Assembly (NCBI GenBank): GCA_031271865.1
Contig: JAISUW010000034.1
Location: 1-51,470 of the forward strand
Direction: 5' to 3'
Source: Oscillospiraceae bacterium
GTDB taxonomy: Bacteria; Bacillota; Clostridia; Oscillospirales; Acutalibacteraceae
Length of the DNA: 51,470 nucleotides
Shown piece after piece: positions 9,827 through 51,470 of this stretch. Every line of letters starts with the position of its first letter. The stretch's first letter is position 1. The notes beneath the pieces were generated by a model that made no database searches, had not been told where the DNA came from, and was given only the letters and a program-made list of their open reading frames with translations. The position numbers and the translations under genes are program-made.

Positions 9827-9921
9827 GGGCGCGTATTACGCGCCCGCCCAAGAGGCCGCATTGCGGCCTCCTGCGCTGGGACCGCATTGCGGTCCCCCCC
9901 ATGGAGCCGCAATGCGGCTCC
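9827..9921. repeat. Cluster of four 19-bp palindromes
   Basis: Four near-adjacent perfect palindromes each have 9-bp arms and a single central base: 9827-9845 (GGGCGCGTA arms), 9852-9870 (GAGGCCGCA), 9878-9896 (GGGACCGCA) and 9903-9921 (GGAGCCGCA). The inner CCGCA/TGCGG is shared by the last three while the outer bases change in a compensated way. The cluster fills the gap between convergent bofA and the F420-ligase-like gene, so terminator or RNA-structure roles are possible. Confidence 0.9.
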
Positions 9922-45083: not shown

Positions 45084-45161
45084 GGGTAGGGATGTGAACT
45101 TTTTATGATATATCGGATGAATACCGCAGACGGGCGTATACCCGTCGGAAAGGAGAACAAA

Positions 45162-46220
45162 ATGGCAGGAAAGGAAATCCCCGGCCAGGCAGTTGCCTAT
45201 CCGGGGCAGGAAAGCGATTTCTGGTACAGTCTGCGCCGCAGCGTGCCCGCGCTGGATGCCGCCATTGGTCACCTGGTCCGCTTATCCGGCGGTTTTCAGG
45301 CCGAAACCGAGCCGGCAGCGCAGGACTACTTAGCTGAAATCACTTCGCAAATCTCTGTGGACGGCACGCGTCAAGGTCTGTCCGCCTTTGCCGACAGCTA
45401 CCTGGAGCAGCTCCTCACCTGCGGCACAGCCGTCGGCGAACTCTCAGCCGCCGTGCAAGACGGACGAATCGTCCCGCTGCTCTCCAACGTCCCCTTACGC
45501 GCCGTAGCTTTGCGGCGCACGATGAGCGGTGCGGAGATTTGCGCCGTGGGCAAAGACGGCGCAATGCTCCCCCTCAAGCATCCGGAGCATGTCTTTCTCT
45601 CCGTCCTCTCGCCGATCCCCGGCAGCTTGTGCGGGACAAGCCTTTTGGCAGGCTTAGACGGTCCGGCGGGTGCGTTCGTGCAGATTCTGGACACCGTCAA
45701 ACGCAACTGGGAGCGTTTGGGGAGTGTGCGTTACCATGTATCCACCCACGCCGATACCGCCGGCGGTGCGCCTGCCGCTGCCCGCGCGGGCCAGTTGGCG
45801 GAGCGTTGGCGCGAATGTATGCGCACAGAGGGTGCCCCCCCGCAGGACTTTATTACGACAGGGAATGTGGAGATAAAGGTCATCGGTGCCGAGTGCAGGC
45901 TCCCGGATTGCGCCGTCCCTATCCGTACGCTGTTGGAGCAGATGGTCGCGAAAACCGGCTTGCCGCCGTTCTTGCTCGGCTTGCAATGGGGTACCGCCGA
46001 CAGGCTCGGCACGGCGCAATTGGATTTGCTGACCACCGGTATTGAGAGCTACCGCCGCATTCTGACGCCGGTTTTGGTGCGCATCTGCCGCTGTCTGCTG
46101 CAGCTGGCCGGTTTTTGCAGTGATGTCAGCATCCTATGGGAGGATGTCTCCCTAAAGGATACCGTAGAAACAGCCAAAGCCGCCCTCCTGCGCGCCCAAA
46201 CCCAAGCCCTGCTCCAGTAG
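45162..46220 (+). CDS. Phage portal-like protein
   Basis: The 352-residue protein resembles short portal proteins of clostridial cryptic prophages: an N-terminal domain (YSLRRSVPALDAAIGHLVRL), a middle region, and the clip/stem-like C-terminal segment DFITTGNVEIKVIGAECRLP then LLEQMVAKTGLPPFLLGL and TTGIESYRRILTPVLVRI. Portal rings let DNA enter the prohead. The length is at the short end for the family. ATG 45162 has AAAGGAG; an upstream open frame to 45105 is unlikely. It is the first gene of the set and no terminase gene precedes it, since pgi lies immediately upstream in the opposite direction. Confidence 0.82.
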   Translation: MAGKEIPGQAVAYPGQESDFWYSLRRSVPALDAAIGHLVRLSGGFQAETEPAAQDYLAEITSQISVDGTRQGLSAFADSYLEQLLTCGTAVGELSAAVQDGRIVPLLSNVPLRAVALRRTMSGAEICAVGKDGAMLPLKHPEHVFLSVLSPIPGSLCGTSLLAGLDGPAGAFVQILDTVKRNWERLGSVRYHVSTHADTAGGAPAAARAGQLAERWRECMRTEGAPPQDFITTGNVEIKVIGAECRLPDCAVPIRTLLEQMVAKTGLPPFLLGLQWGTADRLGTAQLDLLTTGIESYRRILTPVLVRICRCLLQLAGFCSDVSILWEDVSLKDTVETAKAALLRAQTQALLQ

Positions 46221-46337
46221 CAGTGAAGCATGCGCATGAATACACAACCGACCGCTGCCTGAAAGGGGGGATGCCTATGATTGTCTGACACCGGCCGCCC
46301 AAAGGAGCCTTAGGATGTGAAGGAAGGAGAATACAAG

Positions 46338-47366
46338 ATGATTTACAGGAAGTACTGTGCTGCCGTCGGCGGGAGTCCGCCCGCCGGCGGAACCCCGGAG
46401 GGGGAGGAGTTGGAGCAAATCAATTTCTTTACCCTGCGCAAATTCACGGCGGAGGAAGTCTTTGTCTTCCGCTGCACCCTCTGCGACAATGAGATCGACC
46501 GCGACTACGACCGTTTCACGACTGAAGCTCTCCATACGCTTTCCCGCTTATTTGTGGGCCGCACCGGACTCTTTGACCACTCCGCCAAAGCCCGCGACCA
46601 AGTCATGCGCATCTTTTCCTGCGCCGTGGAGGAAGTCCCCGAACGCACCAACCGCTTGGGCGAACCCTATGTCCGGCTGAACGCCAAGGCATACCTCCCG
46701 CGCCTGCCGGAAAACGAATCCCTCATCTTAGAGATTGAAGCCGGCATAAAAAAGGAAATCAGTGTGTCCTGCGCCATGCGCTCCCCGCGCTGCTCCGTCT
46801 GCGGCGAATACTTCGAAAGCGACGAGTGCCCCCACGCCAAAGGCGACACCGAATGCGCCAAAGTGCCCGTCCATGCCGTCCTCGCCGAGCCGGTGGATGC
46901 CTTTGAGTTCTCCTTCGTCGCCATTCCGGCGCAGCCTGCGGCGGGCGTGCACAGCATGGACTGCCGTGCCGTGGAGCAGCAAACGGTATACGAGGACGAA
47001 CGCACACCGCCGCGGCATCCCCAAATGGAGCAAGGCTCCGCCCTCAACTTCTTCAAGCAGAAGTTAGCCGCGGGCCTCCCATTCACGACGCCGCGGTACG
47101 CGGTCGGGGAGCTGCGCCAAGCGATAGAGCTTTTAGAAGAGCAAGCGCAAAAGAGTGCGGACTGGCTAAGCGGCTTACGCAGCGATGTGCGCCGCAGTTT
47201 GGTGCTGGCGATGCCGGGCTTGCCGCCGGAGGCATACGACGGCATGGTAGCGGATGCGGAACCGGCGCAACTGGAAGCGCTCCGGGCGTGTGCGTGGAGC
47301 CGGCTGAACGGCCCGCAACTCATCGGCGAGACCCCCTCCGAGGATGTCGCCCCTTACAAAATCTGA
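46338..47366 (+). CDS. Phage prohead protease-like protein
   Basis: The 342-residue protein has an N-terminal region resembling phage prohead proteases: FRCTLCDNEIDRDYDRFTTE, LFVGRTGLFDHSAKARDQVM (with His), an EIEAGIKKEISVSCAMRS strand (Ser), a Cys/His cluster CSVCGEYFESDECPHAKGD that may bind zinc, and DAFEFSFVAIPAQPAAGVH. The last 100 residues (from about 245) are helical and could be a scaffold part. It should cleave scaffold and capsid during head maturation. ATG 46338 has AGGAGA 7 nt upstream; a GTG at 46317 is also in frame. The 117-nt gap before it holds only a five-codon ORF. Confidence 0.75.
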   Translation: MIYRKYCAAVGGSPPAGGTPEGEELEQINFFTLRKFTAEEVFVFRCTLCDNEIDRDYDRFTTEALHTLSRLFVGRTGLFDHSAKARDQVMRIFSCAVEEVPERTNRLGEPYVRLNAKAYLPRLPENESLILEIEAGIKKEISVSCAMRSPRCSVCGEYFESDECPHAKGDTECAKVPVHAVLAEPVDAFEFSFVAIPAQPAAGVHSMDCRAVEQQTVYEDERTPPRHPQMEQGSALNFFKQKLAAGLPFTTPRYAVGELRQAIELLEEQAQKSADWLSGLRSDVRRSLVLAMPGLPPEAYDGMVADAEPAQLEALRACAWSRLNGPQLIGETPSEDVAPYKI

Positions 47367-47416
47367 CATTGGCCGAAAGACACCGGGATACAGTAATAGG
47401 AAAAGGAGATATAATC

Positions 47417-48433
47417 ATGGCTTATGACAACCTCACGTTCGACAAATCCATCTATGCGGCAAACCTGGACTTCACGAAAGCGCTGGAGGCGCTCGACCCC
47501 TCGTCCGCTTATCTCGGCACAGAACTTGCCGGCACCGACGCCTTTGAGCGGCAGCTGCTGCGCTACGGCATCCGCCTGAAAGGCACCGACGCCTCTCGGG
47601 TAGAGAAGTTCTTCCAAAACGCCCAGACGGCGGTGCTGTTTCCTGAGTATATCGCCCGCACAGTACGCACCGCCCTGGAGGAAGCGGAAGTCCTCAACCG
47701 CCTCTGCGCCGTGCGCACGCACATCGATGGCATGGACTACCGCTCCATAGAGAGCACCGACCTCGCGGCCATCGACGTAGCGGAGGCCATCGCGGAGGGA
47801 GCGGAACTCGGCACCACACAGATAAAGAACAAGGCCCAACTCGTGCAGCTGCAAAAGTACGGTCGCCGCATCATGGCCTCGTATGAAGCCGTCCGCGGGC
47901 ATTCCATTGCCCTGTTTACGGTCATGCTCAAGCGCATCGGCACGGAGATGGCGAATGCGCAGCTGAACGCCGCCGTCACAACCCTCCTGACCTCTGTGGA
48001 TGCCGCCAACACAATTGCGTGTGACGGCACGACTGCCAACCTGCAAGCCTTGGCTCAGCTCTGGTCCGCTTTTGAAAGCTCCCCCTTGAGCGTCCTGATA
48101 TGCGGGATGCAGCGTTTCACGGAGATTGTATCAGACTACGACTTCACGCGCCCGGATGCCGGCTTGAAGTTTGTAGGCACCGGCAACCCGGGAACGCCGG
48201 TCGGCGCCCTCTTGATAAAGTCCGCCTTGGTGCCGGACGATTGCATCTTGGGACTTGCCGGCAGCGACGCGTTGGAAATGGTTGAGAGCGGCTCCATTGT
48301 CACCGACTACGAGAAGTGGATCTCCCATCAGTTCGACTGTGCGTCCGTGACCGCAACCGCCGGCTTCAATGTCATCACACCCGCCTCCGTCAAGAAGCTG
48401 ACCTTCGGTGCTTCCGGCGAAAGCGACGGCTGA
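47417..48433 (+). CDS. Phage major capsid protein-like
   Basis: The 338-residue protein has an N-terminal scaffold-free stretch (MAYDNLTFDKSIYAANLDFT), then RVEKFFQNAQTAVLFPEYIA and a TALEEAEVLNRLCAVRTHID segment typical of clostridial HK97-fold-type capsid proteins, and a C-terminal part (ISHQFDCASVTATAGFNVIT) with strands near the end of the shell protein. The ribosome binding site AAAAGGAG is strong, as expected for an abundant protein. A GC-rich repeat region of 589 bp follows before the next gene. Confidence 0.8.
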   Translation: MAYDNLTFDKSIYAANLDFTKALEALDPSSAYLGTELAGTDAFERQLLRYGIRLKGTDASRVEKFFQNAQTAVLFPEYIARTVRTALEEAEVLNRLCAVRTHIDGMDYRSIESTDLAAIDVAEAIAEGAELGTTQIKNKAQLVQLQKYGRRIMASYEAVRGHSIALFTVMLKRIGTEMANAQLNAAVTTLLTSVDAANTIACDGTTANLQALAQLWSAFESSPLSVLICGMQRFTEIVSDYDFTRPDAGLKFVGTGNPGTPVGALLIKSALVPDDCILGLAGSDALEMVESGSIVTDYEKWISHQFDCASVTATAGFNVITPASVKKLTFGASGESDG

Positions 48434-48651
48434 TTCAAGAGGCAAGAGGCAAGCGCGGCGGAAAAGGTTACAATCGGTAACAAAAAATATCCAAAATCCG
48501 CCGCACAATCCCTGCTTCCGGAGGCAAGAGGCAAGAAGCAAGAAGCAAGCGCGGCGGAAAAGGGTTACAAACGGTAACAAAAAATATCCAAAATCCGCCG
48601 CGCTATCCCTGCTTCCGGAGGCAAAAAGCAAGACCAAGCACCCAACCCAGA
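48434..48651. repeat. Tandem composite GTTAC/CAAGARG element after capsid gene
   Basis: Two ~97-bp copies each have CAAGAGG/CAAGAAG heptads, GCGCGGCGGA, the 15-bp core (48467-48481 and 48564-48578), an A-tract, ATCCAAAA and TCCGCCGC. The outer GCGGCGGA/TCCGCCGC arms could fold into a long hairpin around the core. No gene is supported here. Confidence 0.88.
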
Positions 48652-48930
48652 CAGGAAACCGAAACCCTGCCCCCAACCCACATAGAGGCCCCCAAGGAGC
48701 GCCTATGGAAAATTCGCCCTACAGGACACAAGGCGAATTTTCCATCCAAGCGGGCAAGTCTCAACGGGGGTCCGGGGGACCCCCCGGCCGCGGGGGGTCC
48801 CGGGGGCGCCGCGGGACGCGCCCCCGGGCGGGGGTTTGGGGGCGGCGCCCCCAAGGTGGGAGCACCAAGCAATCCTTTCCACCCAACTAAGAGGCAGAAC
48901 CCAACCAAAGTGCAAACCCATTCCTCCCAA
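48652..48930 (+). repeat. GC-rich element copy 1, with 14-bp hairpin
   Basis: From CAGGAAACCGAAACC (48652) the element runs through a perfect hairpin (arms 48705-48718 and 48732-48745, loop 13 nt), the conserved CCAAGCGGGCAAGT, a very G/C-rich tract (about 48765-48860) and ends near AAAGTGCAAACCCA. An inverted near-copy lies at 50936-51178. This and 48931-49021 hold no supported gene. Confidence 0.88.
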
Positions 48931-49021
48931 CCGGAGGCAAGCGGCAAGAGACAGGAGGACGGGGACACCGCCGCCCCCGACCCGGCACACCCTGCCGCCC
49001 ACAACCGAAAGGAGAAGTATC

Positions 49022-49390
49022 ATGTCCGCGATAGACACCGTAAACGCCAAGTTTCTTCTCTACTGTCCCCTTTCCGCCGCGGAGCAATCGGCGGCGGAAG
49101 ATCTATGCGCCGAGAGCTACGCCCGCATCCAGGCGCGTCTGCATTCACCCGAAGACGATGCCGAAGACGACCGCGTCCTGCAATGTGCCGCCTTAGAAGC
49201 GGCATACGACTGGGTCTGCCGCAAGTGCTTGGAGCAGCTCAAGCGCCCGGCATTCCGCGCCGGCGACATCACCGTTGCGTCCCCGGATTACCTGCGCGCT
49301 TTCGACATGATATACCGGCTCTGGCACATCGCCCTCGACGATGCCGCACCGCTGCTGAAAGACCCCGCTTTCTATGCCGAAAGCGTATAA
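49022..49390 (+). CDS. Phage head-tail connector-like protein
   Basis: The 122-residue mostly helical protein has a small acidic middle (EDDAEDDRV), as in head-tail connector (gp6/gp15-like) proteins, and an all-helix C-terminal half (AALEAAYDWVCRKCLEQLKR). AAGGAG lies 7 nt before ATG 49022. It is followed by a strong terminator hairpin (49395-49426). The assignment rests on size, helicity and position after the capsid gene. Confidence 0.6.
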   Translation: MSAIDTVNAKFLLYCPLSAAEQSAAEDLCAESYARIQARLHSPEDDAEDDRVLQCAALEAAYDWVCRKCLEQLKRPAFRAGDITVASPDYLRAFDMIYRLWHIALDDAAPLLKDPAFYAESV

Positions 49391-49394
49391 CGCC

Positions 49395-49426
49395 GGGGCA
49401 GGGCTGCAAAGGCCCTGCCCCATTTT
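49395..49426 (+). terminator. Rho-independent terminator
   Basis: GGGGCAGGGC, a 7-nt loop, GCCCTGCCCC, then ATTTTT. It is the best terminator in the window, placed between the connector-like gene and the next structural gene, so read-through or a separate promoter is needed for the genes that follow. Confidence 0.85.
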
Positions 49427-49446
49427 TAATACAGGAGGGAACCCAA

Positions 49447-49773
49447 ATGGACGAATTCTTCGCAGCCTACGGCCGTCCCTGTACCCTGCAGGCGCAAGGC
49501 AGCCAAACACAGGGCGAGCCATTCTACGCATTCATAGAACCCTTGCGCTATAAGAACAAGATGTACGTCGGCGGCATCAACACCCAAATCGGCTTCAATC
49601 GCGAGGGGTATTATCTCTGCATGGCCCCGGCGGAATCCGGCATAGCCGAAACCCCGGACGGCGTCATCGTCCTCTCCCCGACCGAATCCTACACCATCGA
49701 CCGTGCCGAGCGCGTATGGCTTGGCACGGAAATCTGCTACATCTGGGCGATTCTGCGCTCTGTAGTTGTATAA
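49447..49773 (+). CDS. Small phage completion-type protein
   Basis: The 108-residue protein is a mostly beta protein (MDEFFAAYGRPCTLQAQGSQ; GYYLCMAPAESG), in the position of a head-completion or stopper-type protein between connector and tail genes. No strong family motif is seen. AGGAGG precedes the ATG by 8 nt. Confidence 0.55.
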   Translation: MDEFFAAYGRPCTLQAQGSQTQGEPFYAFIEPLRYKNKMYVGGINTQIGFNREGYYLCMAPAESGIAETPDGVIVLSPTESYTIDRAERVWLGTEICYIWAILRSVVV

Positions 49774-49785
49774 GGAGGTAAATCC

Positions 49786-50649
49786 ATGCCCGAAAACAGT
49801 GCCATCAGCGCCCTCCCCGCAGACATTGCCGCCTGGCTCGCGGCGCAGGACGCAGTGAACACCCAAGCCGCCGTCATCACGGCCTTCCCGGCAAGCAACA
49901 AGCCCGTCCCGCTCAGCACACCGATAGTCGCGGTCGGTCTCTCCAAAGCTTCCATCACAGACAAGTTCGTTGCAAATGACGACGGTGTCCTGGAGGAGCA
50001 GGAGTACTGCCGCACGGCCGAACTGCGCATCAGCTTCACCATCCACGTCCCTTACCGCATGGGGGGCGCCGTATGCCACAGTCTCTGGACGCTTGTCACG
50101 GATCTGCTCACCTTCGCCTCCGACCTGAACATCACCGCCTCCGGCTGCAATCAAGTCAAGCCGCAGCGGGATACCGACAGCTTCTCCTTAGAGGCCTGGT
50201 GCGATGTCTTGGCGGACTTCTGCCCCGCCGAATCCACCGGCTTGGAGTTGGAGAGCTTCCTCCCGAAAGACATCCTCTGCGGTTCCCACATCTCCAATAC
50301 AGCGATTCATCTCTCCGCCGCCGACCGCGCCTGGATAAACGCCCCCTACCGCAGCGGCACGTACATCGGCGACGGCACCGCCTCCCGCACCATTGCTTTG
50401 GACGTTTCGCCGGTTTACGTCACCGTCTGGGCGGACGAATACCCGCCGTTCCTAGCCGACTTCACGGCCGGCACGGTGCAGACCTATGCAGCGCAAGGCA
50501 GCACCACCGCCGCCACCCTCGGTCTGTCCCTCACGGCAAGTGGCTTCCGCCTCACCACCGGGAGCGCCGCAACCTTAGGCAACACTGCCGCCGCGCTCAA
50601 CATCGCCGGCCTGACCTACGCCTACTTCGCCCTCGTGCAAGACGCATGA
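49786..50649 (+). CDS. Phage tail-type protein with adhesin-like C-terminal domain
   Basis: The 287-residue protein has an N-terminal half (about 1-165) of tail-completion type (AAQDAVNTQAAVITAFPASN) and a C-terminal half (from about 190) with SGTYIGDGTASRTIALDVSP, a motif common in phage tail fibre or adhesin domains, and a Gly/Thr/Ala-rich end (TLGLSLTASGFRLTTGSAAT). It is the last structural gene; AAGGAGG precedes it. No tape measure, sheath or baseplate gene follows. Confidence 0.6.
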   Translation: MPENSAISALPADIAAWLAAQDAVNTQAAVITAFPASNKPVPLSTPIVAVGLSKASITDKFVANDDGVLEEQEYCRTAELRISFTIHVPYRMGGAVCHSLWTLVTDLLTFASDLNITASGCNQVKPQRDTDSFSLEAWCDVLADFCPAESTGLELESFLPKDILCGSHISNTAIHLSAADRAWINAPYRSGTYIGDGTASRTIALDVSPVYVTVWADEYPPFLADFTAGTVQTYAAQGSTTAATLGLSLTASGFRLTTGSAATLGNTAAALNIAGLTYAYFALVQDA

Positions 50650-50935
50650 GGGTCTGCACTTTGGTTTGCTTCTGCTTAATGGTAGGCTGAAAGGATAGCT
50701 CTGTTCCACCACCTTGGGGGCGCCGCCCCCAACCCCCCGCCCGGGGGCGCGACCCCTATCTTGGCATGAAAGGATTTGCACTTTGGTTGGTTTTTTCCTC
50801 AGGTTGGCATAAAAGGATTTGCACTTTGGTTTGCTTCTGCTTAATGGTAGGCTGAAAGGATAGCTCTGTTCCACCACCCCGGGGGCCAGCCCCCGGACCC
50901 CCGCCTGGGGGCGCGTCCCCTATCTTGGCATGAAA
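50650..50935. repeat. Tandem partial copies of the GC-rich element
   Basis: Modules beginning (T)TTGCACTTTGG at 50654, 50770 and 50818 each run into GGATAGCTCTGTTCCACCAC (or a shorter form) and a G/C-rich tract. They are inverted relative to the end of copy 1 at about 48880-48930 and precede the full inverted copy at 50936. No gene is supported from 50650 to 51470. Confidence 0.8.
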
Positions 50936-51178
50936 GGATTTGCACTTTGCTTTGGTTCTGCCTTAAGGTATCATAAAAGGATGGGTGTGTTCCACCACCC
51001 CGGGGGCGCGTCCCGCGGCGCCCCCGGGACCCCCCGCGGCCGGGGGACACCCCCGGACCCCCGCGGAAACTTGCCCGCTTGGATGGAAAAATCTGCCCAA
51101 ATCCTGAATGCAGATTTTTCCATATGCGCTACTCTGTTCCTCGTCTGGGGTTGGGGGCAAGCTTTCGGTGTCCTGTAT
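50936..51178 (-). repeat. GC-rich element copy 2, inverted, with 14-bp hairpin
   Basis: Reads as the reverse of copy 1: TTTGCACTTTG, GTGTTCCACCACCCCGGGGG, a G/C-rich tract, ACTTGCCCGCTTGG, hairpin arms 51083-51096 and 51110-51123 with a 13-nt loop, and the complement of the CAGGAAACC start near 51178. Hairpin arms differ from copy 1 at three pairs, all compensated. Confidence 0.88.
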
Positions 51179-51218
51179 GAGTTGGGTGCAGATCCATGCT
51201 TCTTACCTTGTCCGTACC

Positions 51219-51293
51219 CACGTGTACACTAGCCACGTGTACACTAGCCACGTGTACACTAGTCACGTGTACACTAGCCACGTGTACACTACC
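51219..51293. repeat. 15-bp tandem array, right end
   Basis: Five copies of CACGTGTACACTAGC (51219-51293; copy 3 ends in T, copy 5 ends ACC). Same unit and same orientation as the array at the left end of the window. From 51294 to 51409 nothing is recognised. Confidence 0.92.
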
Positions 51294-51412
51294 CCCTCAA
51301 AGCAGAACTTCGTCAAAATCACGATTGTTCAGCCAACAATCCGACACTTCTTCGTCAAAATGCACAAAACCAGAAGTAAGAGGAAAAGAGTAGAACGAAC
51401 ATCACCCCCATA

Positions 51413-51470
51413 CAGGAAACCGAAACCAGGCCCCCAAGCAACCGAAAGGAACAGCGTAGCGCATATGGAA
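51413..51470 (+). repeat. GC-rich element copy 3, cut by the window end
   Basis: The last bases contain CAGGAAACCGAAACC and GCGCATATGGAA, the same left end as copies 1 and 2, and stop at the first bases of the hairpin arm. The sequence ends inside a repeat. Confidence 0.85.

What the first reader, a model, noticed from the sequence alone, without database searches (positions are those of the whole stretch)
48652..51178. Inverted GC-rich element pair with a covarying 14-bp hairpin
Two copies in opposite orientation carry a perfect 14-bp stem and 13-nt loop. The stem arms differ at three positions and every change is matched on the other arm (T-A to A-T, G-C to T-A, C-G to G-C). Both loops keep CAGGA. 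Conserved CCAAGCGGGCAAGT and a G/C-rich tract follow. Compensated changes point to selection for the fold, as RNA or single-stranded DNA, in a mobile or regulatory element.
Basis: seen in the sequence. Interest (0 to 1): 0.75.

Follow-up and report, generated by a model that had tools for sequence, protein, structure and literature searches.

The report
Species-specific repeated hairpin between genes
The two hairpins belong to a patchwork DNA repeat that lies between genes, with at least 45 copies in this one bacterial genome and no clear copy found in the relatives searched; its paired arms stay mostly matched, but that fits a known kind of repeat and does not by itself prove a working RNA.

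Summary
In detail: two opposite copies carry perfect 14-bp stems, 13-nt loops with CAGGA and three matched arm differences. They are 2 of at least 45 copies in this genome; a third is cut by the window's end. 23 of 45 lie within 400 bp of a contig end, so the true number is probably higher. No other genome searched had a match at E 0.001; weaker genus hits exist, one a hairpin with nearly the same loop (G006, E 0.01). The hairpin is one module of a roughly 300-bp mosaic (leader, P1, anchor, P2-P4, tail) whose modules are swapped between copies. None of 45 overlaps a predicted gene. In 44 copies 31 stems are perfect and 97.1% of pairs are Watson-Crick. Double changes exceed shuffles but nearly all belong to three hairpin alleles; changes private to a copy are mostly uncompensated and as frequent in the stem as in the unpaired anchor. 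Best reading: a new species-restricted family of BIME/BOX-like intergenic palindromic repeats. The copying enzyme is unknown; the one RAYT-like gene found sits among a different REP family. RNA function is neither shown nor excluded.

The parts
48638..48704 (+). Copy 1, leader (GCACCCAACCC...GGAGCGCCT)
   Evidence: Shared by most lined-up copies; in some copies replaced by another repeat
48705..48745 (+). Copy 1, P1 hairpin: 14-bp stem, 13-nt loop with CAGGA (C allele)
48746..48759 (+). Copy 1, anchor CCAAGCGGGCAAGT
48772..48787 (+). Copy 1, P2 inverted repeat CCGGGGGACCCCCCGG
   Evidence: other copies have forms that differ in both arms
48799..48828 (+). Copy 1, P3 inverted repeat CCCGGGGGCGC...GCGCCCCCGGG
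48836..48854 (+). Copy 1, P4 inverted repeat TTGGGGGC GGC GCCCCCAA
48855..48932 (+). Copy 1, tail ending ...AAAGTGCAAACCCATTCCTCCCAACC
   Evidence: right border approximate
51124..51190 (-). Copy 2, leader
   Evidence: left border approximate
51083..51123 (-). Copy 2, P1 hairpin (B allele)
51069..51082 (-). Copy 2, anchor CCAAGCGGGCAAGT
50925..51063 (-). Copy 2, G/C-rich part (P2, P3) and tail; P4 is missing here
50802..50919 (-). Tail-only fragment without P1
50761..50818 (-). Tail-only fragment without P1 (overlaps the previous one)
50649..50755 (-). Tail-only fragment without P1
51400..51470 (+). Third copy: leader and first bases of P1, cut by the contig end
48462..48633 (+). Two copies (48462-48536, 48559-48633) of another intergenic repeat that replaces the leader in some element copies elsewhere
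51309..51331 (+). Member of the TTCGTCAAATTCACGATTGTTCA repeat, often beside element copies
   Evidence: (71 sites in the genome)

Best explanation
The finding is part of a species-restricted family of dispersed, non-coding intergenic repeats built from palindromic modules (leader, P1 hairpin, anchor, P2, P3, P4, tail), of the BIME/BOX kind. Shown: at least 45 copies; none overlapping a predicted gene; module forms that differ in both arms; swapping of modules between copies; stems kept mostly complementary; no match at E 0.001 in the other genomes searched. Inferred: new copies arise from copies whose hairpins are intact, because an enzyme supplied in trans acts on the folded single strand; recombination then shuffles modules, and resident copies decay without much constraint. 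The enzyme was not found (my odds for this copying step alone: about 0.35).
For: 45 copies on one strand of the model search; 0 of 45 overlap predicted genes (for 41, for 4); two-arm forms of P1 to P4; P1 alleles do not follow the flanks: at least 13 allele changes on the flank tree, with allele B in separate places (poorly resolved tree); 98.6% of cells paired against 91.9% shuffled while private changes are mostly uncompensated and no rarer than in the anchor, as expected if only source copies are constrained; at copy 1 the gap between capsid gene and next gene is 588 bp here against 27-151 bp in 9 of 10 comparable relatives.
Against: No base-exact insertion border, target duplication or empty site within the species is known. 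No mobiliser: one weak Y1_Tnp hit, RAYT-like, is linked to other palindromes; no reverse transcriptase hit; other transposase families were not searched. Recombination and segmental copying alone could also spread the modules. The relatives compared at copy 1 are distant (41-46% identity of the capsid protein).
Confidence: 0.55

Rival explanations
1. The arms match because replication template switching and gene conversion between copies correct near-palindromes; the fold as such has no function. The repeat may still be mobile or merely recombining.
For: Allele B differs from the others at several neighbouring pairs at once, the C-to-T allele step has U.G intermediates in the direction C-G, U-G, U-A that PMC8794818 describes for template switching (passages). 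Private changes are no rarer in the stem than in the anchor. Whole-hairpin exchange is visible.
Against: Nine mismatched cells and nine wobbles persist uncorrected in 44 copies. The same steps fit ordinary compensation through G.U.
Confidence: 0.3
2. The element works as RNA in the messages it sits in (stability, processing or termination), and this selects the fold on the element's own strand.
For: Neighbouring genes run in the element's direction in 41 of 63 cases (p 0.023; 37 of 54 distinct genes, p 0.009), without a link to gene direction or GC skew of the wider region (20 and 18 of 40; 23 of 40). One-sided stem changes are 9 G.U to 0 A.C in P1 (44 copies) and 9 to 2 in P3.
Against: The G.U excess is confounded: C-to-T also exceeds G-to-A in unpaired parts, 28 to 8 column events over 71 C and 46 G columns, though not in the unpaired parts next to P1 taken alone (3 to 4). 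The decayed C21 copy has two A.C mismatches. No Rfam match, no promoter or terminator signal above chance. The direction tests were not corrected for their number.
Confidence: 0.12
3. The element is moved by the genome's RAYT-like transposase.
For: A RAYT-like gene is present (242-aa frame, Y1_Tnp, E 1.6e-4, 22.6 bits, just at the cut-off). A G[C/T/G]AG tetranucleotide stands at a fixed place five bases before the stem in 43 of 45 copies, GTAG itself in 11; REPs carry GTAG before the palindrome (PMC8266576, PMC2817692, passages).
Against: That gene is flanked on both sides by CCGCAATGCGG palindromes, 128 of which lie in the genome. None of the 47 element matches is on its contig. GCAG, not GTAG, is the commonest form (30 of 45), and it does not touch the stem.
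Confidence: 0.03

Closest known systems
BIMEs / REP sequences (REP-RAYT systems)
   Same: Dispersed intergenic palindromes combined into mosaics; palindromes kept while sequence varies ('suggesting selection for complementary mutations', PMC2817692, passages).
   Different: Longer (about 300 bp, four hairpins), not linked to the RAYT-like gene found, GTAG in only 11 of 45 copies and not next to the stem.
BOX elements of streptococci
   Same: Composite of exchangeable modules, predicted to fold strongly if transcribed, many copies, species-typical (PMC3049150, passages).
   Different: No sequence relation known; G/C-rich hairpins; no boxB-like middle array seen in most copies, though tail modules repeat in places.
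Stem-loop repeat families catalogued in 40 bacterial genomes (PMC2267715)
   Same: Intergenic repeat family with a shared stem-loop (passages).
   Different: Their listing was not compared by sequence; this genome is not known to be among the 40.
MITEs
   Same: Small, non-coding, strongly base-paired, many copies.
   Different: PMC3049150 (passages) describes MITEs as AT-rich with terminal inverted repeats and target-site duplications; this element is largely G/C-rich and I saw no terminal inverted repeats by eye.

Membership tests
REP / BIME (RAYT-linked) | Palindrome preceded by a GTAG-type tetranucleotide | tested here: inconclusive
   At the fixed place five bases before the stem: GCAG 30, GTAG 11, GGAG 2, other 2 of 45 copies; not adjacent to the stem
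REP / BIME (RAYT-linked) | RAYT gene flanked by the same palindromes | tested here: not met
   The one Y1_Tnp gene is flanked by CCGCAATGCGG palindromes; no element match on that contig among 47
REP / BIME (RAYT-linked) | Intergenic, many copies, mosaic of palindromes | tested here: met
   45 copies, 0 of 45 in predicted genes, modules exchanged
BOX-type composite repeat | Separate modules that combine and repeat | tested here: met
   Leader, P1, G/C part and tail occur in different combinations; tail-only fragments
BOX-type composite repeat | Sequence relation to known BOX modules | not tested
   No BOX sequence was fetched for comparison
MITE | Terminal inverted repeats | tested here: inconclusive
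   None seen by eye in lined-up copies; borders are blurred by neighbouring repeats
MITE | Target-site duplication | not testable with these tools
   No close relative with a base-exact empty site; relatives are distant
Known structured RNA family | Match to an Rfam model | tested here: not met
   0 matches in the window at gathering scores; 0 at E up to 1 in 48400-51470
Retro-copied element | Reverse transcriptase in the genome | tested here: not met
   0 PF00078 matches in the genome, held as 70 contigs and 93.8% complete

The most novel reading that the evidence does not exclude
A self-spreading modular element whose folded single strand (RNA or ssDNA) is the unit that is copied and recombined, hairpin by hairpin, by an enzyme that is neither the RAYT found nor a reverse transcriptase; the two-arm forms of P1 to P4 and the fixed G[C/T/G]AG and ACAGGA motifs would be the parts recognised. 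A hairpin with 15 paired positions and the loop CTACAGGATTCAA in the genus relative G006, about 1 kb from a serine-recombinase-like frame, could be a distant relative of its source.
Probability: 0.1. Interest if true: 0.65.

Novelty: new member of a known kind. Interest (0 to 1): 0.33.

Why it matters
It adds a strongly folded, modular repeat family that coincides with many breaks of this assembly (23 of 45 copies within 400 bp of a contig end). With genomes of sister strains, its many copies would let one ask directly whether paired changes in hairpins come from selection or from template switching. By itself it is an ordinary kind of genomic repeat.

Tried and rejected
Exact pattern TTTTCCATCCAAGCGGGCA in named collections: 7 genome stretches and 1 viral contig; by eye none of the 8 has such a hairpin before the match, so I take them as chance. 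Element DNA against phages and plasmids: no match; records of the own or a very near genome may be left out of these collections. Capsid protein in viral contigs: 4 stretches matched a pattern, none was confirmed.

Hairpin model in 200 family genomes: only the own genome at E 0.001, with stricter filters. In 14 genus genomes at E up to 1, 9 of 13 relatives have weak hits (one locus read for each, G008 had two hits). Their alignments: G003 (E 0.004), G005, G004 and G001 match the flanking words and not the stem-loop; G003's lies in a 199-aa frame and G008's read hit in a 487-aa frame; G012's stem is partial; G013 has an 8-bp stem with loop CAAAAGGAGATAA; G007 has a 10-bp stem TGGAAAACCC and CAAGCGGG but no CAGGA, with DnaA-box-like words (box recalled); G006 has 15 paired positions and the loop CTACAGGATTCAA. 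With 13 genomes searched, E 0.01 is near what chance gives, so G006 is kept as a lead only. A loop-and-stem scan of the 150,039 bases of relatives held gave 2 hits against 3.25 in plain shuffles; only the G006 stem is long.

Strand-specific RNA reading from the G.U excess: not used as proof after the unpaired control; the P4a counts mix both strands and say nothing. Counting independent compensations on a tree failed for lack of resolution. A link to replication direction was not seen (40 of 45 copies, 5 without a fetched region). RNAalifold on the G/C part gave almost no covariation term (0.07; 1 of 22 pairs with a double change), perhaps because the two module forms do not align column by column; that P2 to P4 change on both arms rests on reading forms, where P3 also has 16 plain mismatches in the 38 sites found (two sites filtered from the tally).

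Rows dropped: C21 from the stem counts and the tree (44 of 45 used); the copies on C4, C40, C59 (position 100) and C21 were not among the 41; L012:2031 was left out because most of its G/C part is missing, as were copies with under 100 bases downstream.

Full report
Check of the observation. The two hairpins are where stated, with perfect 14-bp stems, 13-nt loops, CAGGA in both loops and three matched arm differences. Both fold better than shuffles as RNA and as ssDNA. Whole copies fold at z -3.6 and -3.1 against shuffles.

Extent. blastn of a 241-base query gave 47 rows in the own genome. A covariance model of the hairpin with its flanks (from 41 copies) found 45 copies on one strand and 42 further rows that are the same palindromes read on the other strand. 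23 of 45 copies lie within 400 bp of a contig end, and the window itself ends inside a third copy, so the number is a lower bound. A 168-base query for the G/C part and tail gave 52 rows, some of them without P1.

Anatomy. Lined-up copies show leader, P1, anchor, P2, P3, P4 and tail. Several modules occur in two or more forms in which both arms differ: P1 (alleles C, T and B), P2 (CCGGGG/CCCCGG against CCAGGGGGG/CCCCCCTGG and GCAGGGG/CCCCTGC), P3 (two forms, 26 and 12 sites) and P4 (TTGGGGGC/GCCCCCAA against CCGGGGGC/GCCCCCGG). The leader can be replaced by another repeat. A G[C/T/G]AG word stands five bases before the stem in 43 of 45 copies. Around the copies lie further repeats: TTCGTCAAATTCACGATTGTTCA (71 sites with up to 2 mismatches, control 0) and GCAAGAR heptads (20 matches to a three-unit pattern, 8 of them in one array, control 0; beside the element on the left in 21 of 39 and on the right in 16 of 23 copies that could be scored).

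Place. No hairpin of 45 overlaps a gene predicted by my own simple codon-usage caller. At copy 1 the capsid gene and the next gene are 588 bp apart; in the 10 genus relatives where both were found the gap is about 27-119 bp in eight, 151 in one and 956 in one (which holds other frames); one further locus could not be paired. This supports gain of DNA here, without base-exact ends.

Distribution. 0 of 39 other genomes by blastn (13 of the same genus), 0 of 13 genus relatives for the G/C part and tail, 0 of 199 others in the family by the model at E 0.001 with stricter filters. At E up to 1 the model gives weak hits in 9 of 13 genus relatives; on reading one, in G006, is a real hairpin with 15 paired positions and the loop CTACAGGATTCAA, one has an 8-bp stem with AGGA in the loop (G013), and the rest lack either the stem or the loop or lie in protein frames. 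At E 0.01 in 13 genomes this is a lead, not a homologue.

Is the fold selected? For: 98.6% of cells paired against 91.9% in shuffles; 28 double-change cells against 5.6; slid versions give at most 2. In 44 copies 598 of 616 cells are Watson-Crick, 9 wobble, 9 mismatched, and 31 stems are perfect. Against: the double changes belong to three alleles plus the private G-C to A-T change of C70; one-sided private changes are commoner than compensated ones; private changes are 20 of 1232 letters in the stem and 7 of 440 in the anchor, the same rate; the number of pair types is not above shuffles (117 of 500). The flank tree is mosaic and unresolved. One-sided stem changes are 9 G.U to 0 A.C in P1 and 9 to 2 in P3, but C>T also exceeds G>A in unpaired parts overall (28 to 8 column events in 71 C and 46 G columns), though not next to P1 itself (3 to 4). 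So complementarity is kept overall, but selection on resident copies is not shown; template switching (PMC8794818; abstract and passages) explains the data about as well.

Orientation. Neighbouring genes favour the element's direction (41 of 63, p 0.023; 37 of 54 distinct genes, p 0.009). For 15 of 19 same-direction right-hand genes the start lies 218-301 nt past the hairpin, soon after the tail. Net gene direction and GC skew over up to 20 kb show no link. The bias is weak and not corrected for the number of tests.

Mobiliser. One Y1_Tnp gene of RAYT type lies among CCGCAATGCGG palindromes (54 and 74 sites on the two strands, reversed-pattern control 0 and 1) and not among this element. No reverse transcriptase hit. 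Other transposase families were not searched.

Verdict. A new species-restricted family of a known kind (BIME/BOX-like intergenic mosaic palindromes). Literature was searched in open-access full texts by words only; of the papers cited I read passages, and for PMC8794818 also the abstract. The element itself was not searched for by sequence in print.

Noticed in passing
window 45117-50649; L133, L134, L135, L136 and L122-L132 (genus relatives): A phage head gene cluster (portal, an unknown family, major head protein, two small genes, one 287-aa gene) is kept in the same order across the genus: the head protein is found in 10 of 13 relatives at about 41-46% identity (two pieces in G006) and in 9 of 9 good genomes counting the own. 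In the relatives small and large terminase lie just before it; the large terminase is in 11 of 13 relatives, four of the matches with an internal stop, and gave no match in the own genome. In the four stretches read, what follows looks like ordinary cell genes, with no tail genes seen by eye. It may be a domesticated or satellite-like head module; not resolved.
   Followed up: partly
G000:C56 7900-8076 (L055, L056); window 9856-9917: A separate REP/RAYT system: a RAYT-like gene flanked by CCGCAATGCGG palindromes whose outer arms differ in matched fashion (GGAA/TTCC, GGCG/CGCC, GTCC/GGAC and others); 128 such palindromes in the genome, three of them in the window.
   Followed up: partly
L082 1501-1570 (-), genus relative G006: One hairpin with 15 paired positions (one mismatch) and the loop CTACAGGATTCAA, like the loops of the element, about 1 kb from a frame that looks like a serine recombinase. 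Possible distant relative of the element, or chance.
   Followed up: partly
L122, L124, L125, L126, L129, L130: gap between head-protein gene and next gene: In several relatives the short gap after the head-protein gene itself holds a G/C-rich inverted repeat of unrelated sequence, by eye.
   Followed up: no
L133 8955-9912 (G009): In one relative the same gap holds extra frames, one of them with a phage family of unknown function (phrog_17593).
   Followed up: no
window 51309-51331 and 70 further sites in the genome: Another dispersed repeat, TTCGTCAAATTCACGATTGTTCA, partly in tandem arrays (for example on C13, C39, C51 and C68).
   Followed up: no
window 51219-51294: Tandem copies of a 15-bp unit CACGTGTACACTAGC between copy 2 and the cut third copy; similar units lie beside a copy on C22.
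   Followed up: no
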